From contig NZ_CP059973.1 of NCBI RefSeq assembly GCF_009193295.2, forward strand, positions 2,790,001 through 2,854,000: DNA of 64,000 bases, given 5' to 3'. Under the pieces are notes generated by a model, which did not search any database, was not told the DNA's origin, and saw only the letters and a program-made list of their open reading frames with translations. The position numbers and the translations under genes were made by a program. Source of the stretch: Bacteroides luhongzhouii (lineage in GTDB: Bacteria; Bacteroidota; Bacteroidia; Bacteroidales; Bacteroidaceae). Shown here in pieces: positions 190-15,200 of this stretch (position 1 is the stretch's first letter; each line of letters starts with the position of its first letter).

Positions 190-1281
190 TTATAGTTCAA
201 TATCATTGAGTTGGATAATCCAGTCGTTTACATCAATTACTGTTTTAATCAGTGCCAGTTTTTCATCTACGAAAATAATCATGCTGTAGTTATCTTCGCG
301 ATCCAGATATTCCTGGAGAGTATAATTCCGGTCTTTGTATTTCTCTAGTTGGAGTAGTTCCAGATATTTCACCAAGTTAGAACTGTGGAATAACGTTTCG
401 TCTGTCGCGGAGTTTTTGATGGTCAGCTGCGGGGTTTTATTCTCCATCAGTCTGGCAACACTTATCTCACTGACAACGGCATTGTATTCTTTGGCAGGTT
501 CGCCAGTTTCACTGAAAGCTCTTGTTGTTATAACTTCGGATTCTACAACAAATGGCTTGTAAGTCAGTAAGTTGTCCTCCAATAGTGAATTGTCGTAATT
601 CATGTATCCGTTATCGTCATAAATCTCGCATTTGAATGTTTCTTCAGTCAATGCTCTTGTTATCGGGCCGTCGGATTTGTTGACCTGTGCCACGACTATG
701 CGGATATTATTGGTGTTCTTCACTAAAGACACCATACTGATTTGTTGCCTTCCATTACGTGTTGTAGTTGCATTTTTGACTTCACCATGCCAGAGTGAAT
801 GTAACTCTTGTTCTACGATATATTGCCCTTTTTCATCTTCTCCGAAAGAAGAACGTGTCATTGCTTTACGTAATGTTTTTACTTTCAACTCTTCAATTTC
901 TGATTGTTGCGGATATAATAAAGGTACTGCGAACGATTCATTATTTAATCCGGCCCATGCAATCAAGTGATATTTTGATGGATCAACATCTACAGTCATT
1001 AGATAGTCGTCTTTTTCTAACGGTGCTCCTTCATCTGTTTTCTGGAAGACTAGATTGTTATTGTCGTCAAAAGCATAAAGTGTCACTGTCTTTACTTGTT
1101 TGGAAAATACGTCTACCTCGTCCATGTTATAGTCATACTTAAACTTCACACGATACTGGATGCTGCAATCTCCATCGTCATAATCCAGAATGGAGTCGCA
1201 CGATGTAATTGCACCAGCCAATATGGTGAGCAACAATATCTTGTTAGCTTTTTCTTGTATGGTAGTTAGTATTTGTTTCAT
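190..1281 (-). CDS. FimB/Mfa2-family fimbrial anchor or minor subunit lipoprotein
   Basis: A 363-residue predicted outer-membrane lipoprotein: signal peptide, then Cys in ITSCDSI, followed by the Y/D-rich segment DYDDGDCSIQYRVKFKYDYN that is typical of the FimB/Mfa2 family. FimB/Mfa2 proteins cap or anchor the pilus and control its length. The frame stays open to a GTG at 1290, but the ATG at 1281 (MKQILTT) is preferred. It lies 112 bp after the major pilin gene, separated from it by a strong hairpin (1343-1395), and only 1 bp before the next fimbrial lipoprotein. Expression is therefore probably by read-through from the pilin promoter at reduced level. Family call is confident; anchor rather than tip function is inferred. 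Confidence 0.85.
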   Translation of the reverse strand: MKQILTTIQEKANKILLLTILAGAITSCDSILDYDDGDCSIQYRVKFKYDYNMDEVDVFSKQVKTVTLYAFDDNNNLVFQKTDEGAPLEKDDYLMTVDVDPSKYHLIAWAGLNNESFAVPLLYPQQSEIEELKVKTLRKAMTRSSFGEDEKGQYIVEQELHSLWHGEVKNATTTRNGRQQISMVSLVKNTNNIRIVVAQVNKSDGPITRALTEETFKCEIYDDNGYMNYDNSLLEDNLLTYKPFVVESEVITTRAFSETGEPAKEYNAVVSEISVARLMENKTPQLTIKNSATDETLFHSSNLVKYLELLQLEKYKDRNYTLQEYLDREDNYSMIIFVDEKLALIKTVIDVNDWIIQLNDIEL

Positions 1282-1342
1282 TATTCTCACTTTTTATGCT
1301 TTTAGAAAATAGTGTTTTGTTTGAATGTAATGCGGGGGTGAT

Positions 1343-1395
1343 AAGTCTTAATAAAAATCAGGAGAGTTTTTCTCTCCTGATTTTTATTAAGACTT
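1343..1395. terminator. Long perfect hairpin between pilin and anchor genes
   Basis: Arms of 24 bp (1343-1366 and 1372-1395) are perfectly complementary around a 5-nt T loop. The right arm overlaps the stop codon of the pilin gene (1394-1396). Read on the minus strand, the inner GC-containing stem is followed by a T-rich stretch inside the outer stem, so it can act as an intrinsic terminator or attenuator in either direction, or as an RNA-stabilising/processing stem. Confidence 0.75.
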
Positions 1396-2677
1396 AGAGA
1401 CCAATGTTATTATTATGGATTGTCCAAGGTTGTATTTTGGCTGTTACAATAAGTTTGGTTGGATCTGATGGGGTAGGAGGAAGTTCACTCGGCCAACCAA
1501 GATCGTTAATTGTGGTAACTGTAAGCTTGTACCAGTTATTTCGTATGATAGTACAATTCTTGCCGGTATGTTGGATTGGTGCATCGTAATAACAAATACC
1601 ATTTGTATATTTGACGATTTCATATTGGCTAAGATCTCCGGCTTCTTCTTCTGTTGCAGGAAGATTGCCGAAATCATTCTTCATTTGTTCCCATGATGTG
1701 TAAATTGTCTTTTTAGTTTCGCCATCATAGAACGTTTTAACAAAGAATGTGGAAGCAGGTTCGTAATCTGTTGTACCTTCTGAGTAGAAATAAACTTGTC
1801 CTTTGTAATGTACGTTAGTTGCAGTAGGTTTTGCATCTTCATATGCTAAACCTACTTTGTTTTCTAAACAGTATGTAATGCCAGTGAGAATCCATTCGAA
1901 ATTTCCTTTAGCAGCGGGTTGAAAATAAAGGTCATCTCCTGTCCAACTGTTTTTTTGTGGCAATGCATATGAATCTTTTGTTAAATTGGAATAAGAGTGG
2001 TTGGTGATTTTTATGGCTACCAGTTTTCCATCTTTGGGAGTCACTGTCGGCTTTTCTAATTCGAAAGCATGATTGGCATCTGTCTGTTCATCCAGTTTTG
2101 CGGAAACACGGCTTACCACGAGTTCGGCTGTATTATCTTCTTTGCCTGCTTTGATTTCAACTGTTTCTCCTTTGTCACAGCTCATTAGAAAGTTGCCGCT
2201 GGAAGCTATTGTGGTGCTGAGATATTTTAGATTTTCCCATGCTTGCTTTCCTACAGTTAAGTTGTTGTAATCAGTACCGTTGGAGAGTGCTGCGTTAAGT
2301 GCTTCTGTCGGATTGATAAATGCATAAATTGTGGCTGTTCCTGCTGATACTACAAATGCGTCGGTACTTGCTAATCTTACATTGTTTTCATCCGGAGAAC
2401 CATTAAGTGTCATGTTTTCTTTGACTATTCGTTTTGTTCCGTTGTAATCTAATACAATAGTTGCTGTTTTAATTTCAGATTCATCATTGTTACCAGGGTT
2501 AGTTCCATCTTCAGCAACAGATCTGCTTTTGTTTTCTTCAGATGCTAAAAAACTAATTCTAATACTTGCGTTGTCACCGGCAGTTTGAGTGCTGTTGTCG
2601 ATGAATTCATCATTGTTGTTACAAGCTGCCATGGCTGTCATTGCCAATCCTGCTAATAATAAATTTCTAACTTTCAT
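1394..2677 (-). CDS. Mfa1-family major fimbrial subunit (lipoprotein precursor)
   Basis: A 427-residue precursor of the main pilin. Signal peptide with lipobox-like MTAMAAC (Cys19), then a Ser/Asn-rich spacer with the basic site NKSR near residue 53, where Mfa1-type pilins are proteolytically trimmed before polymerisation. The C-terminal part carries the WYKLTVTTINDLGWP segment and a final strand ending NNNIGL, typical of the family's donor-strand region. Surface assembly by lipoprotein export and protease-mediated strand exchange is known for the family. It has its own promoter (2960-2967) and a leader of about 275 nt, and is followed by a long hairpin. Confident as Mfa1-type. Confidence 0.88.
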   Translation of the reverse strand: MKVRNLLLAGLAMTAMAACNNNDEFIDNSTQTAGDNASIRISFLASEENKSRSVAEDGTNPGNNDESEIKTATIVLDYNGTKRIVKENMTLNGSPDENNVRLASTDAFVVSAGTATIYAFINPTEALNAALSNGTDYNNLTVGKQAWENLKYLSTTIASSGNFLMSCDKGETVEIKAGKEDNTAELVVSRVSAKLDEQTDANHAFELEKPTVTPKDGKLVAIKITNHSYSNLTKDSYALPQKNSWTGDDLYFQPAAKGNFEWILTGITYCLENKVGLAYEDAKPTATNVHYKGQVYFYSEGTTDYEPASTFFVKTFYDGETKKTIYTSWEQMKNDFGNLPATEEEAGDLSQYEIVKYTNGICYYDAPIQHTGKNCTIIRNNWYKLTVTTINDLGWPSELPPTPSDPTKLIVTAKIQPWTIHNNNIGL

Positions 2678-3291: not shown

Positions 3292-4740
3292 TTATTTTGC
3301 AGGATAGTTTAGTTTCTTGTTCAATTCTATCAAGTTTGTGTCCGCTTGTGTTGTAAGTCCGGCAGCTTTTGCTGCTTCGAAATATTTTCCGGCTATATCC
3401 AGATTTCCTTCCAGCAGGGCAATTACTCCTAGATTGTTTATTGTTTCGGCCGCTTCTTGATTGGCTTTTGCCAGGTGTTTTTTGGCAGATGTTAAATCTC
3501 CCCCTTGCTGGATTTCCATTGCAGCGGCATTTAGGTTGGCAACCGGGTCGTCGGGAAACATGACAGAAGCCACCTGGAAAGCATAATTAAACTCTTCACT
3601 TCCGGGTTCGTAACTTTGTGCCACGAGATAAATTTCCTGTAAACTTAGCAATTGAGGATGTTTTTTGATCATTTCCTTGGATTCTTCGAGATTAAAACCA
3701 CGTACCGTATAATTTACCGTATAGTTAGAATGACGCAGGGCTGGATAACACTCGGCTAATAAATATTGGTAAGCCTGCGGACCTATCAATCTGGCTATAT
3801 TGCGTTCTTTGGTGTCAATATCCATCTTTTGATTATCTATCATAAGTAGGATGTCTTCCTTTTTATCCATTGTTGAGTTTTCAACAAACTTGCGGAAACC
3901 CTCCCAGTCTTCGGGGGTATATTTAGAAGAAATGAGACGACTGTCAAAGTTGTAGTAACTGTTCACATAGTCTGCGAGTGACTGGGTGCGTCCTTTGGCC
4001 AGACGGGTATTGTTGGCGTAGCTTCCTTCGGGAGATGCATAACCATGTATCGTGATGCCGGTGAGCTGAGTGTTTTTGTCATTGCGTACTGTATCAATGC
4101 TTGCACGTATCTTTGCCAGCTCCGTCGAATTACTTCTGTATTCCGGATAAATGATAATCTTGTTTACGGGGAAGTCCAGATATGCGGTTCCTTCTATGGT
4201 CCGGTGCTTCACGCCTTCGGCTTCCGGAGTGATATATGCTATTGCCGGATGTATTTTTAATGATGCAATATTCAGTTTCGCAATCATTTCTCCATGGCTT
4301 TCCTCTACTACATCACAACAGCCGCACAAATCTATATTTAATTTTAGGTTTGCCTGTTGCATCCAAGCCTCGTATGGAACCTGAACCAGATAATTAATCT
4401 TTTGGTTTTGCTTTCGTTGATGCCGCATGATAGTATAAGCGTTTTCGGGGGGCTGTTGAGTCCGTTGATTTACTAGTTGGCGTTTCCGTCCATATATTAC
4501 GATAGCCGGCAATATTTTCGTTTGTCCTTCCGCTTCGAGGTAGGGTGTCAGGGTGGCGGCATTGTTAGAGGCAAGTTTCAGGTTTTCGTGCAGGATAAGA
4601 TCCATGCGGATAGTCAGTCGATTATTGTCACTTCGCGTGATCGATTCGTTATCCGTGTGTATTTGATTTTTGTAAAGAGTCTGCGCCTTTCCTCCTAATA
4701 GGGGGATCAGGCAAATGAGTATACATAGAAAATTTTTCAT
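3292..4740 (-). CDS. DUF3868/OmpA-like fimbrial accessory protein
   Basis: A 482-residue exported protein. Signal peptide (MKNFLCILICLIPLLGGKAQ), an N-terminal DUF3868-type beta domain, then an OmpA-like region around residues 165-300 with ITIHGYASPEGSYANNTRLA, the motif class that contacts peptidoglycan. The C-terminal 120 residues look like TPR helices (NLNAAAMEIQQGG, INNLGVIALLEGNL, GKYFEAAKAAGL). Proteins of this type sit beside DUF3575 proteins upstream of Bacteroidales fimbrial genes and probably support envelope assembly. It starts 12 bp after the DUF3575 gene and ends before a terminator. Biochemical function unknown. Confidence 0.82.
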   Translation of the reverse strand: MKNFLCILICLIPLLGGKAQTLYKNQIHTDNESITRSDNNRLTIRMDLILHENLKLASNNAATLTPYLEAEGQTKILPAIVIYGRKRQLVNQRTQQPPENAYTIMRHQRKQNQKINYLVQVPYEAWMQQANLKLNIDLCGCCDVVEESHGEMIAKLNIASLKIHPAIAYITPEAEGVKHRTIEGTAYLDFPVNKIIIYPEYRSNSTELAKIRASIDTVRNDKNTQLTGITIHGYASPEGSYANNTRLAKGRTQSLADYVNSYYNFDSRLISSKYTPEDWEGFRKFVENSTMDKKEDILLMIDNQKMDIDTKERNIARLIGPQAYQYLLAECYPALRHSNYTVNYTVRGFNLEESKEMIKKHPQLLSLQEIYLVAQSYEPGSEEFNYAFQVASVMFPDDPVANLNAAAMEIQQGGDLTSAKKHLAKANQEAAETINNLGVIALLEGNLDIAGKYFEAAKAAGLTTQADTNLIELNKKLNYPAK

Positions 4741-4752
4741 ATTTGTCTTGTT

Positions 4753-5328
4753 TTAGAATAAATAAATCAGGCTGACGGCAGCTTTAGTCGGTCCTACATA
4801 GTTTTTGTGTCCTTCGCCAACTTTTTCTCCGCAAGTCTTGCATATATATTGCTCATATTTGACGCGCGCATAGCCTGCGCCAATGTTCCCTTCCAGATTC
4901 CAGTGTTTACTTAGAATCCACTGGTAGCCATAGGATATACCGAAACCGTAGAAATTACCTTTGAAACGGTGTTCCTTTAATTCCGGCCAGATTCCCCAGG
5001 GCATATCGATAGCTGCCACCTGATAGACACCTCCGTGGAGATGTACACCAACGAAGTGACCGTTGAATTTGTCACAGAACCAATAACGAAGTTCTGGTTG
5101 GAATGCCAACATTTTCATCATCTTCTGATTTTTGTATTTCCAGGGATTATAATTGGCATACAAATCCAAAGTTAATTTCTTGTTCAAGCTTACTTCAGCT
5201 CCAAGATTGATAACTTTAAGCGCATCCATTATAACATTTGTTTTCACTCCAACCGCTTGACTATATAATAAGGTGGAGGTAAACAGCATTGCGAATAGTG
5301 CAAAAATTTTCTTCTTTTTCATTTTCAT
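4753..5328 (-). CDS. DUF3575-family outer-membrane protein
   Basis: A 191-residue exported protein with signal peptide (MKMKKKKIFALFAMLFTSTLLYSQ) and alternating aromatic strands ending in LIYLF, typical of small beta-barrels; contains GVKTNVIMDALKVINLG, the characteristic DUF3575 start. A longer frame reaches 5394, but its first 22 codons overlap the -7 box at 5357-5364, so the ATG at 5328 (or 5322) is chosen. A CxxC pair (YICKTCGEKVGEG) lies near the C-terminus. First gene of the accessory pair with the DUF3868/OmpA-like gene 12 bp downstream; likely an outer-membrane partner for fimbrial biogenesis, inferred from neighbourhood. Confidence 0.82.
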   Translation of the reverse strand: MKMKKKKIFALFAMLFTSTLLYSQAVGVKTNVIMDALKVINLGAEVSLNKKLTLDLYANYNPWKYKNQKMMKMLAFQPELRYWFCDKFNGHFVGVHLHGGVYQVAAIDMPWGIWPELKEHRFKGNFYGFGISYGYQWILSKHWNLEGNIGAGYARVKYEQYICKTCGEKVGEGHKNYVGPTKAAVSLIYLF

Positions 5329-5356
5329 TACCTGATAGGTTTTGTTTGTTGATGTG

Positions 5357-5364
5357 CAAATGTA
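5357..5364 (-). promoter_or_regulatory. -7 box (TACATTTG) for the DUF3575 gene
   Basis: Exact TAnnTTTG match placing transcription start near 5350, 22 nt before the chosen ATG at 5328. Confidence 0.6.
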
Positions 5365-5804
5365 GGTATAATCCTGGTAGGCCTTAATTGGCATATTGTT
5401 CTTTCTTCAGATAACTTTCAGTGGAAAATAATAAATAGGTTGGTGTTTTATTCTTTGAGAGGGGTGGGCTTATTATTCTTGCATGGGTGGTATTTTGTTC
5501 ATGATTGGTGAATTAATCACATATGGTTGGTAAATGATGCTTGTAGATTCTGTTTATTTGCTTGTATGTATTGTATTTCATTCATTAAAGAATGGTAAAT
5601 TGTTCATTTCCCTTTCGAAAAACTTTTATTTCTTAAATAATGTCCTTATGTTTGCTTCGAACAAACAAAGCGCCTAGTATAAATTGATAAAATTAAAGAT
5701 TCCCTCCTGAGGAACATGAACAAACAACAATGAATTATGTAACGGTTGAAGTGCGATTATCGACAATTCGCAAATATTAAAAAACAAATAAAGGAGGAAA
5801 TATA
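5365..5804. other. Divergent intergenic region between fimbrial and lipoprotein genes
   Basis: No gene. Contains a plus-strand -7 box candidate (5647-5654) and, on the minus strand, three copies of an ACCAAYC word between 5427 and 5535 that resemble a GCCAACC word just upstream of the pilin promoter (about 2991). These could be regulator sites but the match is short. Confidence 0.4.
5647..5654 (+). promoter_or_regulatory. -7 box (TATGTTTG) upstream of the lipoprotein gene
   Basis: Exact TAnnTTTG match followed by a leader of about 145 nt to the ATG at 5805. No clear -33 element. Confidence 0.45.
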
Positions 5805-6431
5805 ATGAAAACTATTAAATTCTTTTTTTCATGTGTGGTTGCATTAGTGTTTACTGCATGTTCTGGTGCAGAAAGTGATAGTATTGAAGATAGCTCTTCG
5901 AACTTTGAGTCCATGATCTCTTTGTATGGCATTGAGTCTGCTGAGCAGATTGGTGAAGTACCTTCTGTGACAACAGAAGAGATGGGAAGTGTATTAGAAG
6001 CACTTCGCAGGAATAATGGTGTCGTTCAGGGATGTAAAGTGGAAAATACGGAAGGGTATTATGGAACCGGTAACGATAAGAAAACTGTAATGATGACGGC
6101 GGAGTATCAAGCTCGCACACGAGGTGGTTCTCTTATTGAGAATTTTGCATTATGTGTCTCATTGAACTTTACTGTAGATAAAAAGATGGTCTATTATGCA
6201 GGTGCTACTTACAATTGTAAAACGGACCTGTTTCTTTGGAAAGGCCAGGGGGCTTCTTTGTCAACTACGGCTGAAGGTGATAATGTGTTTACTTCTACTT
6301 CCTATCTTTATTTTCGTGTAAGTGATCAGGAAAATTGCCTGGTGAAGGTGCCTGTAAGTTTTAGGGGAAATTATGATTTTAATGCGGGTAAAGGGGAGTA
6401 TAGTTTTGTTCTTTCTAAAATTGCTCAGTAG
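5805..6431 (+). CDS. Lipoprotein of unknown function
   Basis: A 208-residue predicted lipoprotein: signal peptide and lipobox ending FTAC at Cys19, then an acidic Ser-rich linker. A strong ribosome-binding site (aaaggagg, 9 nt upstream) supports the start. The body looks mostly beta: residues 80-208 alternate hydrophobic strands (LCVSLNFTVDKKMVYYAG, YLYFRVSDQ, YSFVLSKIAQ). I do not recognise the family. It is a single gene between the divergent fimbrial cluster and the HTCS gene 261 bp downstream. A surface or periplasmic role is all that can be inferred. Confidence 0.75.
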   Translation: MKTIKFFFSCVVALVFTACSGAESDSIEDSSSNFESMISLYGIESAEQIGEVPSVTTEEMGSVLEALRRNNGVVQGCKVENTEGYYGTGNDKKTVMMTAEYQARTRGGSLIENFALCVSLNFTVDKKMVYYAGATYNCKTDLFLWKGQGASLSTTAEGDNVFTSTSYLYFRVSDQENCLVKVPVSFRGNYDFNAGKGEYSFVLSKIAQ

Positions 6432-6691
6432 TCCGCTTTGTATGTGTATAATGAATATATCGAATTTTAAGTTGTAAATGGGGAACTAAACAGCAAACAG
6501 TATATATAATAAGGTGTAATATTAATTGAAAGGTGTAACCATGGATGAAGAGTATTGTTAGTTTCTCAGGGAGCCGGCAATGCGCTTCACTGTAAATTGT
6601 TCTTAAAAAGTCCCTTGTTTTTTTGTGGGTATGTATATTCTCCTTAACTTTAACCAACATAACTCTAACATGGACAAAACAGGTGTCATAT

Positions 6692-9600
6692 ATGAAAAGG
6701 ACTTTGTCTTTATTACTACTATTATTAGGTTTCAGTATATCGTATTCTCTAAATATTCATTGGAGTCCGGAGCCAATAGTAATAAAAAACGGATTTGATA
6801 ATAATACAGTTTATAATGTGTGTTATGGGAAAGATGGCTTTGTCTGGCTGTCTACTGATAGAGGCATAGCCCGTTATGATGGATTTAGATTTCGTGATTA
6901 TCCTTTGGTTACCAAAATAGATTCGTTGTCTCTTCCTTTACCACAGGCAACCAGTACATTGCAGGAAGTTTCGGGCAACCTGTTCTATATCCAGCTATAT
7001 CAAGGAGGAATTGCTTGTTTTGACAGAGAAAAAGAGAAATATCTTCCAATCATTTTTAACCGTCCTTTTAACTTGCGGAATATACATAGTTTTCGTTGGT
7101 GTAATGGCATTTTATATCTGGCTACTTCTCAGGGATTGTTGAAGTCGCAGGTTGTCCGTATGGAAGAAGATAATAAGGATGTTTTATTTTGTACGTTGGA
7201 TGCAAAGCCTTTAGTTAAGGGAAAAACGGGTGGCCTGTGTGCTGACGGGAGCAATAATCTTTATTTTTCTGTTGACAGAAAAAAGGTGATGAGTTATAAT
7301 GTTGAGACGAAAGAACTTGCTTTGCTTAAAGAATATGATGTCGTGAACCGCATTTTCATGGAAAATGGTTATTTATGGATTTGCAGGCTTTGGAATGATA
7401 TTGTCTGTTATGATCTTAAAAAGAATCAAGAACGTGTCATTTCAATAGGAAGCAGTGATAATGTTGATTATTTTAGTTCTTATATCACAGATGTCGAATG
7501 CAGGAATAAGCAGACATTCTATCTGACAACCTTGGACGGATTGTTTGAGTTGGATTTTGAAAATGAAAATCTTTGTGAAAGTCCTGTTTCATTGGAACTG
7601 TTGACGCAATATGAAATAGCATTTCATTCTAATATTGAACGTAAAATGTCGAGTGCTTATTGGGATAATCAACAAAAAATATTGTGGACAAGTACGCTGG
7701 GTGGAGGAATTGTGAAGTTCGACATGGATGATGACATGTATAGCCGGATACAGCAAACATTCAAATCCAGAATTAACGGTATGGTTGAGGATGCCAATGG
7801 TTATATCTGGTTAGTGATGAATTGCGGAACGTTGATGAAAAGTACCACTCCTTTTTTGTCTTCTCAAACTCATTTTGAAGTCTGGAAAAAAGCATCCGGC
7901 TTTTCAAAATATTGCCATATTTATAAGGATAGGAAGGGTGATATTTGGTTAGGTAACAACTCTGGAGAGGTGATGTGTATCAATCCACTGACCGATGGAA
8001 TAGAAACGTTTAATTTGAAAACACCTGACGGAAGTAGACTGGTAACTTCTATTTTTCAGTTTTGTATGGATTCGAGAAACCGTTTGTGGATAGCTACTTC
8101 GGACGGACTGATGCAAGTGAATCCGAAAAATGATGAATGTCGGAAGATCGAGCCTAAGGATGCTGCAATCGAGATGGTGTATACGGTAGTTGAAGATAAA
8201 GAGGGGAGTGTCTGGATTGGTACAAACAGAGGGCTGAAAAGGCTTGAATGTTTGGGAGATGAGATTCATTGGAAAGGAGAGTATGAAAAGGAAAACGGGT
8301 TGGAAGAATCTGCTGTACGAACTATTTACGTGAATAACTCGAATCAGATTTATGCTGCTTATTTGAATATGGTTGTCCGCATTGATGGGAGAGATAAGGA
8401 TAAACTGGAGTCTATATATACCTTACAGAATGGGTTGATTGGTGGAAATGTCAGTTGCATGGTAGATGACCAGATTGGGAATACATGGGCGGCTAATAGT
8501 GCCGGAATTATGATGGTAAGAAATGGACAAAATGCTTTCTATAATTATTTGTCAATAGGTGATTGCAATGCTTCATGCCGATTAAATGACGGACGATTAT
8601 TATGGGCGGACTCATGGGGGATGTTATTCTTTGATCCGGTTGTTTTTAAAACTAACCAAGTGGAAGGCCGGCTCATGCTGACAGATATTGAAGTGAATGG
8701 GGAGACAATTCTGGCAGGAGAGAGCCGGAACGGGCAAATAGTGCTTTCTGCTTCACCTGAAAGACAGGAACAATTATCTTTTAATCCGAAAAATAATAAA
8801 TTCCGTTTATATTTCTCTGATTTACAATATGGAATGATGCAATGTAAGATTGCTTATCGGTTACTTCCGGAAGATGAGGAATGGAGAATACAGCCGCTTG
8901 GGGAAGGAGTGGAGTATAGTGGGTTACCTGTGGGTGAATATGTTTTACAGGCTAAACAGGTCTTTCCGAATGCAAAGGAAGGAGAAGTTGTCGAGGTTCC
9001 TATTGTGGTAAGGGCGGAATGGTATCATACAGCGTGGGCATACTGGGCTTATGGATTATTGGTGTTCATTCTACTCTATCTTGTTTATCGCCATTGGGTG
9101 AAGAAGAATATGTGCAAGCAGATACACCGGGATAATGAGATCTTATTGAAGGAAAAGTTGAATATGGAGAAGGTGAAACAGAAGCAGAAACAAGACATAG
9201 AAGCTATGAGAAGCCATTTGTTGATGGTTTTTATTCAGGAACTTCGTACTCCGCTTTCGTTGATAATTGCGCCATTGAAAGAAATCCTTGAAGATAAATC
9301 GATGGCTCCTAACTTTGCCACTCGCGGTCGGGTGGCTTATCGGAATTCTCTTCGTATGTTAGATGCTTGTAACCAGTTGTTGGCTATTCATCAGCATCGG
9401 AATGTGAATGAGAAACTGAAAGTAGCCCCTTATCAGATAGAAAAGCTGCTTGATAATAATTTGTTTGATGTTCGTGAGTTGCTGAAAATGTATGCGATAA
9501 ATTTCCAGTATGAGAAGCGGATTAGAAAAGGACTGGAATTTTATGTGGATAAAAAGAAAGTGGAATTTATTATCCATAGTCTGCTGACCAATGCTTTTAT

Positions 9601-10789
9601 TCATATTAATTATTCGGGGAATGTTTCTATGACCGTTTGCGAAACGGTGCAGGAACAGTTGCATTATGTGACGGCTATTCTGGAGTATGACGGGCGAAGG
9701 ATGATACAGACTGCCGAAGAGTTGATAAATAAAAATGAAACTTCTGAAGAGGATCTGCTTTATACGGAAATGGGCTTTTCTGCGATGCGTCAAATGGTTG
9801 AAATACATCATGGGAAAATCAGCCTGGAAAGTTCGTTTGATGGAAGCACGAAGGTTATTGTAAGTTTCCCGCTGGATAAGAGTGTATTCGAAAATGATCC
9901 GAATGTGCTGTTTGTTGATCCGGAAGATACAGGTGAAATAGAGCCTCGGCTATTGGACTTTTCGCAGTCAAACCGGACTGTTGAGGAATTTGTCCCATCT
10001 ACTTCGGCCAGACTTAAAAAGACTTTGCTGATTGTTGAAGATCACAAGGATATTCGTCTCTATCTGAAGGTTCTGTTTGGGAAAGAATATAATTTGTTGA
10101 TGGCTACAAATGGTCAGGAAGGCATTGATATGGCTGTGAAAGAACTTCCGGATTTGGTTCTTTGTGATGTTATGATGCCGGTAAAGAACGGATATGATTG
10201 TTGCCGTGAGTTGAAGGGAGGACTGGAGACTTGTAGTATTCCTATCATTATGTTGACAGCCAAGGTGGAAGATGAGGACATTGTACATGGTTTAGAGTTG
10301 GGAGCAGATGACTATGTGCTCAAACCATTCACTCCCAGTATTTTAAAAGCGAAAGTGCATAATTTGATTACTAGCCGGCAGGCATTGAAGCAGATGTATA
10401 CGAAGTTGCTGATGTTGCCGGGGATGGATTCTGTAGAAACGGCTGAACCGGAACAGGCCGAAGAAGCGGTAGCGGTGGAAGATCCGTTTATTAGTTCAGT
10501 TATTAAAATAGTGGAGGAGAATATTTGCAAGTCTGATTTTAGTGTGAAGAAACTTGCGGCGGATATGAATATGAGTCAACCTACTTTATACCGTAAAGTG
10601 AAACAGAGTACGGATTATACAATTACCGAACTTATCCGCGGAGTACGTATGCGCCGGGCAGCTGTATTGCTCAAAACAAAGGAGTATGGAGTACAGGAAG
10701 TCGCGGAAATGGTAGGTTATAATGATATTCCTACTTTTAGAAAGCATTTTGTCGATGCTTTTGGCATCACTCCTTCTACTTATGAATGA
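6692..10789 (+). CDS. Hybrid two-component system protein with degenerate kinase module
   Basis: A 1365-residue HTCS-type regulator. Order: signal peptide (MKRTLSLLLLLLGF), two beta-propeller halves (residues about 30-650, repeats such as DGFVWLSTDRGIARYDG and EGSVWIGTNRGLKRL), Y_Y_Y domain (about 690-780), a membrane helix near 790-812, a HisKA/HATPase-like region (about 835-1080), a receiver (about 1108-1225, phospho-acceptor Asp1159 in LVLCDVMMP, Lys in KPF), and an AraC-type HTH (about 1260-1365). The H-box reads FIQELRTPLS, with Gln849 where His is expected; the ATP-binding N and G boxes are also poor. The frame opens at 6623 but ATG 6692 begins the signal peptide. HTCS proteins sense periplasmic oligosaccharides; no SusC/D genes adjoin it. 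Confidence 0.92.
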   Translation: MKRTLSLLLLLLGFSISYSLNIHWSPEPIVIKNGFDNNTVYNVCYGKDGFVWLSTDRGIARYDGFRFRDYPLVTKIDSLSLPLPQATSTLQEVSGNLFYIQLYQGGIACFDREKEKYLPIIFNRPFNLRNIHSFRWCNGILYLATSQGLLKSQVVRMEEDNKDVLFCTLDAKPLVKGKTGGLCADGSNNLYFSVDRKKVMSYNVETKELALLKEYDVVNRIFMENGYLWICRLWNDIVCYDLKKNQERVISIGSSDNVDYFSSYITDVECRNKQTFYLTTLDGLFELDFENENLCESPVSLELLTQYEIAFHSNIERKMSSAYWDNQQKILWTSTLGGGIVKFDMDDDMYSRIQQTFKSRINGMVEDANGYIWLVMNCGTLMKSTTPFLSSQTHFEVWKKASGFSKYCHIYKDRKGDIWLGNNSGEVMCINPLTDGIETFNLKTPDGSRLVTSIFQFCMDSRNRLWIATSDGLMQVNPKNDECRKIEPKDAAIEMVYTVVEDKEGSVWIGTNRGLKRLECLGDEIHWKGEYEKENGLEESAVRTIYVNNSNQIYAAYLNMVVRIDGRDKDKLESIYTLQNGLIGGNVSCMVDDQIGNTWAANSAGIMMVRNGQNAFYNYLSIGDCNASCRLNDGRLLWADSWGMLFFDPVVFKTNQVEGRLMLTDIEVNGETILAGESRNGQIVLSASPERQEQLSFNPKNNKFRLYFSDLQYGMMQCKIAYRLLPEDEEWRIQPLGEGVEYSGLPVGEYVLQAKQVFPNAKEGEVVEVPIVVRAEWYHTAWAYWAYGLLVFILLYLVYRHWVKKNMCKQIHRDNEILLKEKLNMEKVKQKQKQDIEAMRSHLLMVFIQELRTPLSLIIAPLKEILEDKSMAPNFATRGRVAYRNSLRMLDACNQLLAIHQHRNVNEKLKVAPYQIEKLLDNNLFDVRELLKMYAINFQYEKRIRKGLEFYVDKKKVEFIIHSLLTNAFIHINYSGNVSMTVCETVQEQLHYVTAILEYDGRRMIQTAEELINKNETSEEDLLYTEMGFSAMRQMVEIHHGKISLESSFDGSTKVIVSFPLDKSVFENDPNVLFVDPEDTGEIEPRLLDFSQSNRTVEEFVPSTSARLKKTLLIVEDHKDIRLYLKVLFGKEYNLLMATNGQEGIDMAVKELPDLVLCDVMMPVKNGYDCCRELKGGLETCSIPIIMLTAKVEDEDIVHGLELGADDYVLKPFTPSILKAKVHNLITSRQALKQMYTKLLMLPGMDSVETAEPEQAEEAVAVEDPFISSVIKIVEENICKSDFSVKKLAADMNMSQPTLYRKVKQSTDYTITELIRGVRMRRAAVLLKTKEYGVQEVAEMVGYNDIPTFRKHFVDAFGITPSTYE

Positions 10790-10798
10790 AAAAATGAG

Positions 10799-10806
10799 TA
10801 CTTTTG
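10799..10806 (+). promoter_or_regulatory. -7 box (TACTTTTG) for truA
   Basis: Exact TAnnTTTG match 9 bp after the HTCS stop codon; start of transcription expected near 10813, which rules out the TTG at 10804 as translation start. Confidence 0.65.
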
Positions 10807-10836
10807 CACGCGAAACCTAAAAATATAGAAATTAGA

Positions 10837-11598
10837 GTGCAAAGGTATTTCATTTATTTGGCTTATGACGGAACCAACTATCATGGTTGGCAAATTCAAC
10901 CGAATGGGATTAGCGTGCAGGAATGCCTGATGAAAGCGTTGTCCACTTTTTTGCGTTGCGAGATAGAAGTAGTGGGGGCGGGAAGGACAGATGCCGGAGT
11001 ACACGCTTCTTTGATGGTAGCTCATTTCGATTATGACGTCCCTTTGGATACGGCTTTTTTGACAGAAAAGTTGAATCGTCTGTTACCTCCGGATATTTCC
11101 GTTTATAAGGTTTGCAGTGTCAAGCCAGATGCTCATGCCCGCTTTGATGCAACCTCAAGGACATATAAGTATTATGTAACCACAGCAAAGTATCCTTTTA
11201 ATAGGCAATATCGTTGGCGGATTTATAGTTCACTGGATTATGAGAGGATGAATGAGGCTGCACGTATCCTTCTCGAATATAGCGACTTTACAAGTTTTAG
11301 TAAATTGCATACGGACGTAAAGACCAATATTTGTCACGTTACTCATGCTGGATGGACAAAAGTGGAGGGCGAGGATACTACTTGGGTATTTACCATTTGT
11401 GCCGACCGTTTCTTGCGGAATATGGTGCGTGCCATAGTGGGCACATTGATTGATGTGGGGCGTGGCAAACTTTCTGTTGAAGATTTCCGGCGAATCATCG
11501 AACAGCAAGATCGGTGCAAGGCCGGAACATCTGCTCCGGGGCAAGCCTTGTTTTTGGTGAATGTAGAATATCCGGAAACGTTGTTTATCAGTGATTAG
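10837..11598 (+). CDS. truA: tRNA pseudouridine synthase A
   Basis: Modifies uridines 38-40 of the tRNA anticodon arm. The 253-residue product has the family core: [13 protein letters not shown] near the start, catalytic Asp52 in [12 protein letters not shown], the RTYKYYV strand and [13 protein letters not shown] near the C-terminus. The reading frame is open from a TTG at 10804, but that codon lies inside the -7 box, so GTG 10837 ([12 protein letters not shown]) is the likely start, about 25 nt from the transcription start. Followed after 71 bp by a DMT transporter gene, possibly in one transcript. Confidence 0.95.
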
Positions 11599-11669
11599 CG
11601 GTTGGGTGATTAACGAATTGCTTTACCTGCATTTTACAACTCATAACTTACAATTTATAACATATTCTC

Positions 11670-12572
11670 ATGTGGTTATTATTAGCATTTCTCTCGGCTA
11701 CTTTGCTGGGATTTTATGATGTATTCAAGAAGAAATCGTTGAAAGATAATGCGGTACTTCCCGTTTTGTTTCTAAATACATTTTTTTCCAGCCTCATCTT
11801 TCTGCCGTTTATCCTGATATCCGTATATAAACCGGACTTGTTGGGAGGAACGATATTTAATGTTCCCGTTGTTGGCTGGGAACAGCATAAATATATTATT
11901 ATCAAGTCGTTCATCGTGTTGGCTTCGTGGATATTCGGATATTTCGGAATGAAACATCTACCTTTAACCATAGTGGGACCTATCAATGCTACCCGTCCGG
12001 TGATGGTGCTCGTGGGAGCGATGCTGGTATTTGGCGAACGGTTGAATCTCTATCAATGGATCGGGGTAATGCTGGCCATTGCCTCTTTCTTTATGTTAAG
12101 TCGTTCGGGGAAGAAAGAAGGAATTGATTTTAAGCATAACAAATGGATCTTCTTTATCGTGCTGGCTGCCATTACAGGTGCTATCAGCGGATTGTATGAC
12201 AAGTATCTGATGAAGTCTTTGAATCCGATGCTGGTACAATCCTGGTATAATGTTTATCAGGTGTTTATTATGTGTCCTATCCTGTTATTGCTTTGGTGGC
12301 CTAAAAGAAAGTCTACCACTCCGTTTCGCTGGGACTGGACGATTATCCTGATTTCTATCTTCCTTTCGGCTGCCGATTTCGTTTACTTTTACGCATTGAG
12401 TTATGACGATTCTATGATTTCCATTGTTTCGATGGTCCGTCGGGGAAGTGTGGTGGTTTCTTTCACTTTCGGTGCACTTTTCTTCCGTGAAAAGAATTTA
12501 AAAAGCAAAGCGATTGACCTTATACTGGTGTTAATCGGAATGATATTCTTATATTTGGGGTCTAAAAGTTAA
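11670..12572 (+). CDS. EamA/DMT-family transporter
   Basis: A 300-residue inner-membrane protein with about ten hydrophobic helices in two EamA halves (residues 1-140 and 155-300), the length of a standard drug/metabolite transporter. Conserved Pro/Gly features: GPINATRPVMVLVGAMLVFGERL in the first half and GALFFREK at the end of the second, the usual position of the EamA repeat. Substrate cannot be told from sequence. Between truA and the DUF3256 gene, 45 bp upstream of the latter. Confidence 0.88.
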   Translation: MWLLLAFLSATLLGFYDVFKKKSLKDNAVLPVLFLNTFFSSLIFLPFILISVYKPDLLGGTIFNVPVVGWEQHKYIIIKSFIVLASWIFGYFGMKHLPLTIVGPINATRPVMVLVGAMLVFGERLNLYQWIGVMLAIASFFMLSRSGKKEGIDFKHNKWIFFIVLAAITGAISGLYDKYLMKSLNPMLVQSWYNVYQVFIMCPILLLLWWPKRKSTTPFRWDWTIILISIFLSAADFVYFYALSYDDSMISIVSMVRRGSVVVSFTFGALFFREKNLKSKAIDLILVLIGMIFLYLGSKS

Positions 12573-12617
12573 AACAGTTACACAAAATCTGTTTGTCACA
12601 GGTTAAATAAGATAGAT

Positions 12618-13283
12618 ATGAAAATAAATAAACTTGTAATCACTATATTCTTTTCTGCTGTCGGACTCTTTGCTTCGACCGCTCTTTGGGCACAAGAAGC
12701 CAAAACACTGTTTGTGAATATACCGGATTCTCTAAGCCCGTTACTTACCAAAGTAAACCGGGAAGATTGTATTGACTTTCTGGAAAGTAAGATGAAAGCG
12801 CAAGTAGAGAACCGTTTCGGCAGGAAGTCGGAGATGACTGATCTAAGTAAAGATTATATCCGTATGCAGATGTCGCCTCAATCTACCTGGCAGATGAAAG
12901 TGTTGGCTTTGAATGACTCGACGAGTGTGATCTGTACAGTCTCTACTGCTTGTGCGCCTGCCTGCGACAGCAGCATCCGTTTCTATACAGATGACTGGAA
13001 ACCGCTTACAGCATCTCTCTTTATTACTCTGCCTGTGATGGGCGACTTTCTGAATACTCCGGATTCAGCAGGCGTTTATGAGTTTGACGAAGCACGCCGT
13101 TCGGCAGATATGCTATTGATGAAAGCCGATTTTAATAAAGAAAATACAGAACTGACTGTAACATTAACTACTCCTGACTATATGGCAAAGGAGATGGCAG
13201 AGAAGCTGAAACCATTTCTCCGTCGTCCTATTGTCTATCATTGGAAGAATGGAGCATTTGTTAAATTGAAAATAGAGGATTAA
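12618..13283 (+). CDS. DUF3256-family exported protein
   Basis: A 221-residue protein with a signal peptide ending ALWAQ and a periplasmic body. The start of the mature chain (AKTLFVNIPDSLSPLLTKVNR) and the segment VICTVSTACAPACDSSIRFY, with three Cys, match the Bacteroidales DUF3256 family, whose function is not known. Last gene of a possible truA transcript; a terminator follows at 13336-13378. Confidence 0.85.
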   Translation: MKINKLVITIFFSAVGLFASTALWAQEAKTLFVNIPDSLSPLLTKVNREDCIDFLESKMKAQVENRFGRKSEMTDLSKDYIRMQMSPQSTWQMKVLALNDSTSVICTVSTACAPACDSSIRFYTDDWKPLTASLFITLPVMGDFLNTPDSAGVYEFDEARRSADMLLMKADFNKENTELTVTLTTPDYMAKEMAEKLKPFLRRPIVYHWKNGAFVKLKIED

Positions 13284-14558: not shown

Positions 14559-15170
14559 TTATCGATAATCATATTTAGCTGCTTCATTGCTCCGTAATAC
14601 ATTACGGGCGGCATTCTCATCATGATCGGCTACTTCTTCCGGGCTAAAGTTATTCCATTGGTAAGGGTGGGGCAGGGGCTCTTCAGAGTCAAAGTCTTCG
14701 ATAGAGTTGCGCAAGGCATTGAAACCGATCGTACTGTCGGCTACCAAAACCAGACCGTTTCCTTTGGCGGGAGATAAAACGATCCAACGGGTATCGGTGT
14801 GATGTCCGTTTTCCTGTGGACGTACATAGTTGAAGTACATTTTATCTGCTATTGTCTTATATATGCCAACGAGTGTTCCATGATTACGGTCGATATAGTT
14901 TTCTTCCGGACCACGGCCAAAGTATTGTACATTGTTCATCTGTACCGGCAAGCGGTAATACTTGCTCCGTTCGAACTTGCCGCTCAAGGCATCAGCGCGA
15001 TTGTTGTATGTCATGAAAGAAGTACGTGGGTACTCCTTGTTGACTTCAACTACCTGTACATCCTGCCAATAAGTTTTCACAGCTTTTTCAGCCATTACAT
15101 TAAATGTTGTCAGGGAAAATATTCCCATGAAAATGCCTGTTAATAAATTGGGGGTTGGTCGAAATTTCAT
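14559..15170 (-). pseudogene. Internally deleted GH2 beta-galactosidase remnant
   Basis: A 203-residue open frame stitched from parts of a GH2 beta-galactosidase of about 1000 residues. Residues 1-73 are a signal peptide plus the family N-terminus (YWQDVQVVEVNKEYPRTSFM, ALSGKFERSKYYR). From residue 74 it jumps straight into the C-terminal beta-galactosidase small-chain domain (NNVQYFGRGPEENYIDR, NYVRPQENGHHTDTRW). The jelly-roll remainder, TIM barrel and both catalytic Glu are absent. A second jump is suspected near residue 193, and a one-base loss may explain the early stop after KYDYR. Frame extends to a TTG at 15179; ATG 15170 preferred. It could still make a secreted 20-kDa protein, but not a glycosidase. 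Confidence 0.8.
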
Positions 15171-15200
15171 GTTTCTCAATATTGTTTCTTCATTTCTTTT

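What the first reader, a model, noticed from the sequence alone, without database searches (positions are those of the whole stretch)
9196..9950. HTCS with Gln in place of the phospho-accepting histidine
In the hybrid sensor at 6692-10789 the H-box reads FIQELRTPLS, whereas HTCS proteins carry NISHEFRTPLT: codon 849 (9236-9238) is CAG. The ATP-binding half is also degraded: only one Asn remains in SLLTNAFIHI, the G1 region reads LEYDGRRM and G2 reads EMGFSAMRQM without the GxGxG glycines. The receiver (Asp1159, Thr, Lys) and AraC-type HTH are intact and the frame is uninterrupted over 4 kb, so this is not a decayed gene. It suggests a sugar sensor that signals by conformation, by a partner kinase, or by another phosphodonor.
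Basis: partly seen in the sequence, partly recalled or inferred. Interest (0 to 1): 0.75.

Follow-up and report, generated by a model that had tools for sequence, protein, structure and literature searches.

The report
Kinase-dead sensor beside a fimbria operon
A gut Bacteroides membrane sensor that looks like a sugar-sensing kinase appears to have lost its kinase chemistry, as have its closest relatives, and it sits beside genes for hair-like surface fibers and a small lipoprotein, so it is probably a repurposed switch for those fibers.

Summary
In detail: residue 849 of the 1365-aa hybrid sensor (6692-10789) is Gln and the ATP site is eroded, while receiver and AraC domains are intact. It is a clade-wide trait. 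Of 158 genomes of the genus, 17 carry this gene beside divergent DUF3575/DUF3868 fimbria-type genes and a DUF5033 lipoprotein; the acceptor position is readable in 16 and never His (11 Gln, 3 Glu, 2 Lys), and one lacks the region. All 17 keep the receiver Asp/Thr/Lys. DUF5033 occurs in exactly these 17 of 158. The closest His-bearing cousins keep an intact ATP site and, in the 6 loci sampled, have SusC/SusD or sulfatase neighbours. Purifying selection persists (CA dN/dS 0.07-0.13, receiver 0.01-0.10). An operator-like repeat (5581-5609) is single in the genome. So it is probably not a sugar sensor but a repurposed, kinase-dead fimbria regulator. How the receiver is switched is inferred: most likely phosphorylated in trans and gated by the pseudokinase domain; pure conformational signalling is the main rival. 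All 10 literature searches failed, so novelty rests on recall plus one paper on DivL.

The parts
6692..10789 (+). HTCS-type hybrid sensor (propeller sensor, TM helix by eye, pseudo-DHp/CA, receiver, AraC HTH), 1365 aa, kinase-dead by sequence
9194..9436 (+). pseudo-DHp, residues 835-915, Gln849 in place of His (codon 9236-9238)
9494..9898 (+). pseudo-CA (ATP-binding) domain, residues 935-1069; one N-box Asn, G1 and G2 eroded, lid shortened
10013..10375 (+). receiver domain, residues 1108-1228; acidic pair E1116/D1117, D1159, T1189, K1211 kept
10475..10786 (+). AraC-type HTH, residues 1262-1365
5805..6431 (+). DUF5033 lipoprotein (208 aa), same strand just upstream; found in the same 17 of 158 genomes as the fimbria-linked HTCS
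4753..5394 (-). DUF3575 protein, first gene of the divergent fimbria-type cluster
3292..4740 (-). DUF3868 protein (weak OmpA match below cut-off)
1394..2677 (-). Mfa1-family fimbria major subunit (Fimbrillin_C)
190..1290 (-). Mfa2 fimbria anchor protein
5581..5609 (+). operator-like direct repeat (TTCATT at 22-bp spacing); within 3 mismatches of the consensus in 10 of 17 loci, 5-7 mismatches in 5, not found in 2; single in the genome at up to 3 mismatches
5647..5654 (+). TAnnTTTG -7-like box (motif recalled), 37 bp downstream of the repeat, before the DUF5033-HTCS pair

Best explanation
This is a repurposed HTCS: a membrane-bound transcription regulator of the adjacent fimbria genes and of its own DUF5033-HTCS unit, related to sugar-locus HTCSs, in which ATP binding and the acceptor His were lost. 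Shown by comparison: the loss is clade-wide, receiver and HTH are under purifying selection, the rest of the DHp helix is kept, and fimbria-type genes and DUF5033 are constant partners. Inferred: the propeller, with DUF5033, senses an envelope or assembly cue; the pseudo-DHp/CA dimer acts as a docking gate that holds or releases its tethered receiver; the receiver is phosphorylated in trans (another kinase or a small phosphodonor); the released AraC domain binds the 5581-5609 repeat.
For: Acceptor position Q/E/K in 16 of 16 readable fimbria-linked loci. G1 column identity 0.34 against 0.78 in His cousins and lid/G2 0.27 against 0.73, while L851, R852, T853, P854, S856, L857, P861 and K863 are invariant in 14 of 14 His-less rows. 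dN(CA)/dN(REC) 2.1-11.1 over 12 His-less pairs against 0.7-2.5 over 5 His pairs; unsaturated CA dN/dS 0.07-0.13 and receiver 0.01-0.10 in His-less pairs. Receiver pocket kept in 17 of 17. Divergent DUF3575 and DUF3868 in 17 of 17. DUF5033 in exactly these 17 of 158 genomes. The model keeps the DHp-CA fold; RetS and DivL are among many histidine-kinase matches. Repeat single in the genome.
Against: No biochemical or expression data. Phosphorylation in trans rests only on conservation of the receiver pocket, which could be structural. The repeat lies near the DUF5033-side promoter and no second copy was found near the fimbria genes. His-less CA dN/dS (0.07-0.13) and some DHp values (up to 0.24) exceed those of the His pairs (CA 0.04-0.07, DHp up to 0.12), so constraint on the pseudokinase half is relaxed. 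One MAG locus (L071) lacks the pseudo-DHp and most of the CA in frame, so the gate is not indispensable everywhere, if that assembly is right. L069 and L070 are broken. L086, in the same tree group, still has His.
Confidence: 0.5

Rival explanations
1. Phosphorylation-independent signalling: a ligand-driven conformational change passes from propeller through the pseudokinase dimer to the AraC domain; receiver residues are kept only for fold and interface.
For: No histidine kinase was seen among the Pfam-scanned neighbours; the L071 locus without DHp and most of the CA still has an open 1164-aa frame; two other HTCSs of this genome without an H-box have also lost the receiver Lys, so phosphorylation can apparently be dispensed with in this family.
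Against: Acidic pair, Asp, Thr and Lys of the receiver are kept in 17 of 17 loci, with receiver dN/dS 0.01-0.10; in L136 and L137 the Lys did go.
Confidence: 0.28
2. Phosphatase-only or phospho-receiver reader: the pseudo-DHp binds its own phosphorylated receiver and removes or protects the phosphate, as a timer set by the sensor.
For: Thr853 (His+4, the phosphatase residue of HExxT by recall) is invariant in 14 of 14 rows; DivL binds and stabilises DivK~P without kinase or phosphatase activity (PMC4211667, section 12 read).
Against: Thr853 is just as invariant in the 6 His rows and may be structural; residue 850 is Lys in L074 and L075; DivL itself has no phosphatase activity.
Confidence: 0.12
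3. Gene in slow decay: the kinase half is drifting and the regulator is losing function.
For: L069 is interrupted by about 8 kb with a further stop, L070 is split in two frames, L071 has a deletion; relaxed constraint on the CA and DHp compared with His pairs.
Against: 14 of 17 loci are open at full length and L071 is open though shortened; CA dN/dS 0.07-0.13 and receiver 0.01-0.10; in L070 and L062 neighbouring genes are also split, so some breaks may be sequencing errors.
Confidence: 0.07
4. Active kinase using another acceptor residue, or a heterodimer with a His-bearing HTCS.
For: 29 His-bearing HTCSs were found in the same genome; His842 lies seven residues from the acceptor position in the window protein.
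Against: ATP site eroded across the clade; His842 is not shared by the relatives aligned; none of the 28 own paralogs in the tree belongs to the cousin His clade; the acceptor site varies Q/E/K.
Confidence: 0.03

Closest known systems
Bacteroides hybrid two-component systems (HTCS) of polysaccharide utilization loci
   Same: Propeller sensor, DHp/CA fold, receiver and AraC HTH in one chain; the nearest His-bearing clade in the tree is of this kind.
   Different: No acceptor His, eroded ATP site, fimbria-type neighbours instead of SusC/SusD, constant DUF5033 partner.
DivL pseudokinase of Caulobacter (Tyr550 in place of His)
   Same: Acceptor replaced, poor ATP binding, DHp-CA fold kept; structural match 4q20; lacks kinase and phosphatase activity (PMC4211667: outline and sections 12 and 18 read).
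   Different: DivL reads a separate receiver (DivK) and acts on CckA; here receiver and DNA-binding domain are in the same chain.
RetS of Pseudomonas
   Same: DHp-CA structural match: several 6dk8 and 6dk7 chains at TM 0.50-0.51, rmsd 4.6-4.7, other 6dk7 chains 0.43-0.44 at 6.5.
   Different: RetS acts on the kinase GacS and has no AraC output (both recalled).
Parabacteroides short regulators beside fimbria genes (8 in the tree: L011, L012, L014, L017, L018, L021, L023, L026)
   Same: Sister group of the His-less group; DHp-receiver-AraC chain; FimA, Fim1C or Mfa2 genes beside L011, L014 and L021, the three scanned.
   Different: Acceptor His kept, no propeller (shorter proteins), CA eroded.

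Membership tests
HTCS (hybrid two-component system) | Two-component regulator propeller sensor | tested here: met
   Reg_prop 59.5 bits, cut-off 20.4; Y_Y_Y 18.7, below its cut-off 26.6
HTCS (hybrid two-component system) | HisKA domain with phospho-accepting His | tested here: not met
   HisKA 12.6 bits, cut-off 26.9; Gln849
HTCS (hybrid two-component system) | ATP-binding HATPase_c domain with N, G1, G2 boxes | tested here: not met
   23.6 bits, cut-off 26.4; G1/G2 eroded; fold kept in the model
HTCS (hybrid two-component system) | Receiver with Asp/Thr/Lys | tested here: met
   Response_reg 82.1 bits; residues kept in 17 of 17 loci
HTCS (hybrid two-component system) | AraC-type HTH output | tested here: met
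   HTH_18 67.0 bits
Histidine-kinase pseudokinase (DivL-like) | Acceptor His replaced and ATP site degenerate, DHp-CA fold kept | tested here: met
   the fold is a prediction
Histidine-kinase pseudokinase (DivL-like) | No autokinase activity; binds a phosphorylated receiver | not testable with these tools
   needs purified protein
PUL-linked sugar sensor | SusC/SusD or carbohydrate-active genes adjacent | tested here: not met
   Immediate neighbours are fimbria-type genes, DUF5033, truA, EamA; a beta-galactosidase piece lies about 3.8 kb downstream

The most novel reading that the evidence does not exclude
A lineage of hybrid sensors was moved from sugar loci to fimbria control by discarding the kinase: DUF5033 and the propeller form an envelope sensor, and the pseudokinase acts as a reader or gate of its own tethered receiver, so one chain integrates an outside cue with a phosphorylation signal made by other kinases or by metabolism.
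Probability: 0.25. Interest if true: 0.82.

Novelty: new variant of a known kind. Interest (0 to 1): 0.6.

Why it matters
HTCSs are best known as sugar sensors of gut Bacteroides (recalled). A conserved, kinase-dead branch tied to surface fibers and to a lipoprotein family of unknown function would show how hybrid sensors change both signal and chemistry, gives DUF5033 a testable role, and offers a natural case of a pseudokinase fused to its own receiver and output. It also warns that an HTCS annotation does not imply autophosphorylation or sugar sensing.

Tried and rejected
Sugar-sensor reading: not supported by the neighbourhood. Decay: disfavoured by dN/dS, though constraint on the pseudokinase half is relaxed. 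Obligate partner from the cousin His clade: disfavoured, since none of the 28 own paralogs in the tree falls there. A fold for DUF5033: the model is fair (pLDDT 80.0), but Foldseek gave no match at E 0.001 or better and the profile search of solved structures gave one weak hit, E 0.62. DUF3575 as a marker: too common (150 of 158 genomes). DUF5033 outside the genus: 1 of 393 genomes sampled over the order has it, the window's own. More copies of the repeat: none in the genome at up to 3 mismatches.

Weak points. One search is a quick tree (SH-aLRT only, several open forks); two long reverse-strand frames of L009 and L010 slipped in as a far outgroup labelled His; left out of it were L069, L070, L071 (broken or shortened), L079 (near-copy of L078), L119, L136 and L137. 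In one search many dS values are saturated, so the dN/dS ranges leave those cells out; pairs share species and are not independent; one mixed pair (query against L080) is not in either range. In one search, 14 and 6 of the 21 rows were compared; the 21st (L125) was not used. The repeat consensus was taken from the near loci that it is then counted in; in L066 its best match (6 mismatches) is little better than the next (8). Several genome-contig loci are the same assemblies as G-handle loci (for instance L001 and L061, L006 and L072); counts use the G-handle set only. The own-genome survey scored 150 of 376 candidates, so it may miss HTCSs; of 32 regions taken, one (L150) held none.
Full report
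OBSERVATION. Pfam gives a strong receiver (82.1 bits) and HTH_18 (67.0 bits), but HisKA (12.6) and HATPase_c (23.6) fall below their cut-offs of 26.9 and 26.4. Alignment to HK853 puts Gln849 on the phospho-accepting His. A His does occur seven residues upstream (His842), but the relatives do not share it.

THE TRAIT IS CLADE-WIDE. A search of 158 genomes of the genus, with larger stretches taken around the best hits, gives 17 loci, the window included, with the same arrangement. The acceptor position is readable in 16: Gln in 11 (window, L060-L064, L069, L070, L072, L073, L075), Glu in 3 (L065, L067, L068), Lys in 2 (L066, L074), His in none; L071 lacks residues of about 812-1034 in frame. The receiver acidic pair, Asp, Thr and Lys are kept in 17 of 17 (for L069 on two separate pieces). 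Two more members of the same tree group lie outside this count: L088 (Gln, 9.1-kb contig, no fimbria genes in reach) and L086 (His kept, CA eroded, frames split); neither genome has DUF5033.

CONTROLS. In the window's own genome 32 propeller HTCSs were examined (31 others plus the query): 29 have His; the query, L136 and L137 do not. The His-bearing cousins L076-L085 and L087 (11 loci, L078 and L079 near-copies) have HELRTPLT and intact G1/G2; none shows DUF3575, DUF3868, DUF5033 or fimbrillin matches at E 1e-4 in the stretches taken. Ten neighbour proteins from 6 of these 11 loci were scanned: SusC-like receptors in L076, L080, L082, L084 and L085, SusD in L080 and L084, sulfatase in L076 and L087, and one MFS transporter in L080.

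NEIGHBOURHOOD. Upstream on the same strand is a DUF5033 lipoprotein (5805-6431); divergently run DUF3575, DUF3868, an Mfa1-family fimbrillin and Mfa2. Divergent DUF3575 and DUF3868 are present in 17 of 17; fimbrillin and/or Mfa2 homologs were found in 12 of the 16 relatives (not in L061, L069, L073, L075 at that threshold; the L069 stretch ends there). DUF5033 is found in 17 of 158 genomes, exactly those 17, and in 1 of 393 genomes sampled over the order, the window's own. DUF3575 itself is common (150 of 158; 6 matches in the window's genome), so this regulator belongs to one of several such loci.

HISTORY. In a quick tree of 67 rows the 15 His-less rows plus L086 form one group (support 99); with 8 Parabacteroides regulators they form a larger one (97). 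Those 8 keep His but have an eroded CA. Ten proteins of L011, L014 and L021 were scanned: the 8 neighbours hit FimA, Fim1C or Mfa2 families, and the 2 regulators give no HisKA or HATPase_c match at E 0.01. With the 10 His-bearing cousins in the tree they form a group of 34 (100). Because L086 keeps His, the tree needs at least two changes of the His-less label. The simplest story, an inference, is that ATP binding was lost first and the His later, more than once. All 28 own-genome paralogs in the tree fall outside the group of 34.

SELECTION. Pairwise NG86 estimates (18 pairs): in His-less pairs unsaturated CA dN/dS is 0.07-0.13, receiver 0.01-0.10, HTH 0.02-0.04, DHp 0.05-0.24; in His pairs CA is 0.04-0.07, receiver 0.02-0.04, DHp 0.005-0.12. 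dN(CA)/dN(REC) is 2.1-11.1 in 12 His-less pairs and 0.7-2.5 in 5 His pairs, a slight overlap. Column identity (14 His-less against 6 His rows): G1 0.34 against 0.78, lid/G2 0.27 against 0.73, N-box 0.54 against 0.78, DHp helix 1 0.63 against 0.81. The His-less rows are more diverged overall, but the fall is largest at G1 and lid/G2. So the ATP site is freed and the domain relaxed, yet still under purifying selection. DHp residues L851, R852, T853, P854, S856, L857, P861 and K863 are invariant in 14 of 14 His-less rows while 849 varies.

STRUCTURE. An AlphaFold2 model of residues 790-1100 (21 sequences, pLDDT 81.2, pTM 0.68) keeps the DHp hairpin and an alpha/beta CA. Foldseek gives 326 matches at E 0.001 or better, the rows shown being mostly histidine kinases: ZraS, HK853, BceS (TM 0.55), RetS (best chains TM 0.51, rmsd 4.6-4.7) and DivL (TM 0.50, rmsd 5.1). 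The match shows a kinase-type fold, not a function. DUF5033 models as two helices and about nine strands (pLDDT 80.0) with no confident match.

REGULATORY DNA. A 29-bp element at 5581-5609, a direct repeat of TTCATT at 22-bp spacing, is within 3 mismatches of the consensus in 10 of 17 loci, 5-7 mismatches in 5 (L065-L068, L070), and not recognisable in L074 and L075 (10-11). It is single in the genome at up to 3 mismatches, with none for the reversed control, and 0 expected in shuffles of the window. It lies 37 bp upstream of a TAnnTTTG box (motif recalled), a place suited to control of the DUF5033-HTCS unit; control of the fimbria genes is inferred.

MECHANISM. Shown by comparison: loss of the acceptor and of ATP-site features, kept receiver and HTH, constant partners; predicted: the kept fold. 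Inferred: fimbria control, sensing with DUF5033, phosphorylation in trans, gating by the pseudo-DHp. DivL is the precedent: it lacks kinase and phosphatase activity and stabilises DivK~P (PMC4211667, outline and sections 12 and 18 read). Here the receiver is tethered in cis.

NOVELTY. I know of no described His-less HTCS tied to fimbriae, but this rests on recall, because all 10 literature searches failed.

Noticed in passing
L136:3007-6984 and L137:3085-7050 (own genome C1, about 2402506-2406483 and 2421584-2425549): Two further HTCS-like proteins without an H-box; the receiver Lys is lost too, Pfam gives no Response_reg match at E 0.001, and TonB-receptor genes lie beside both (L137 also a GH92): a second, different kind of pseudo-HTCS.
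   Followed up: partly
window 14559-15179: 206-aa frame matching the beta-galactosidase small chain; its relatives are frames of about 1140-1210 aa in L060, L063, L064, L072 and L073, so it looks like a gene remnant.
   Followed up: no
L069 (about 5000-13090): In the B. bouchesdurhonensis locus the HTCS is interrupted by about 8 kb that includes frames resembling an integrase and a mobilisation protein (by eye, not scanned); a further stop lies downstream.
   Followed up: partly
L071:446-3937: An HTCS frame of 1164 aa in a fragmented assembly, lacking the pseudo-DHp and most of the CA in frame, with about 4 kb between it and DUF5033.
   Followed up: partly
L086 and L088: Tree-group members without fimbria genes in reach; in both the next gene begins like a translational GTPase (TypA/BipA, by eye). 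L086 keeps His; L088 has Gln and no propeller in its frame.
   Followed up: no
window 5805-6431: DUF5033 has an invariant Cys19 in 16 of 16 aligned sequences that fits a lipoprotein signal (by eye), and no confident solved-structure relative was found.
   Followed up: partly
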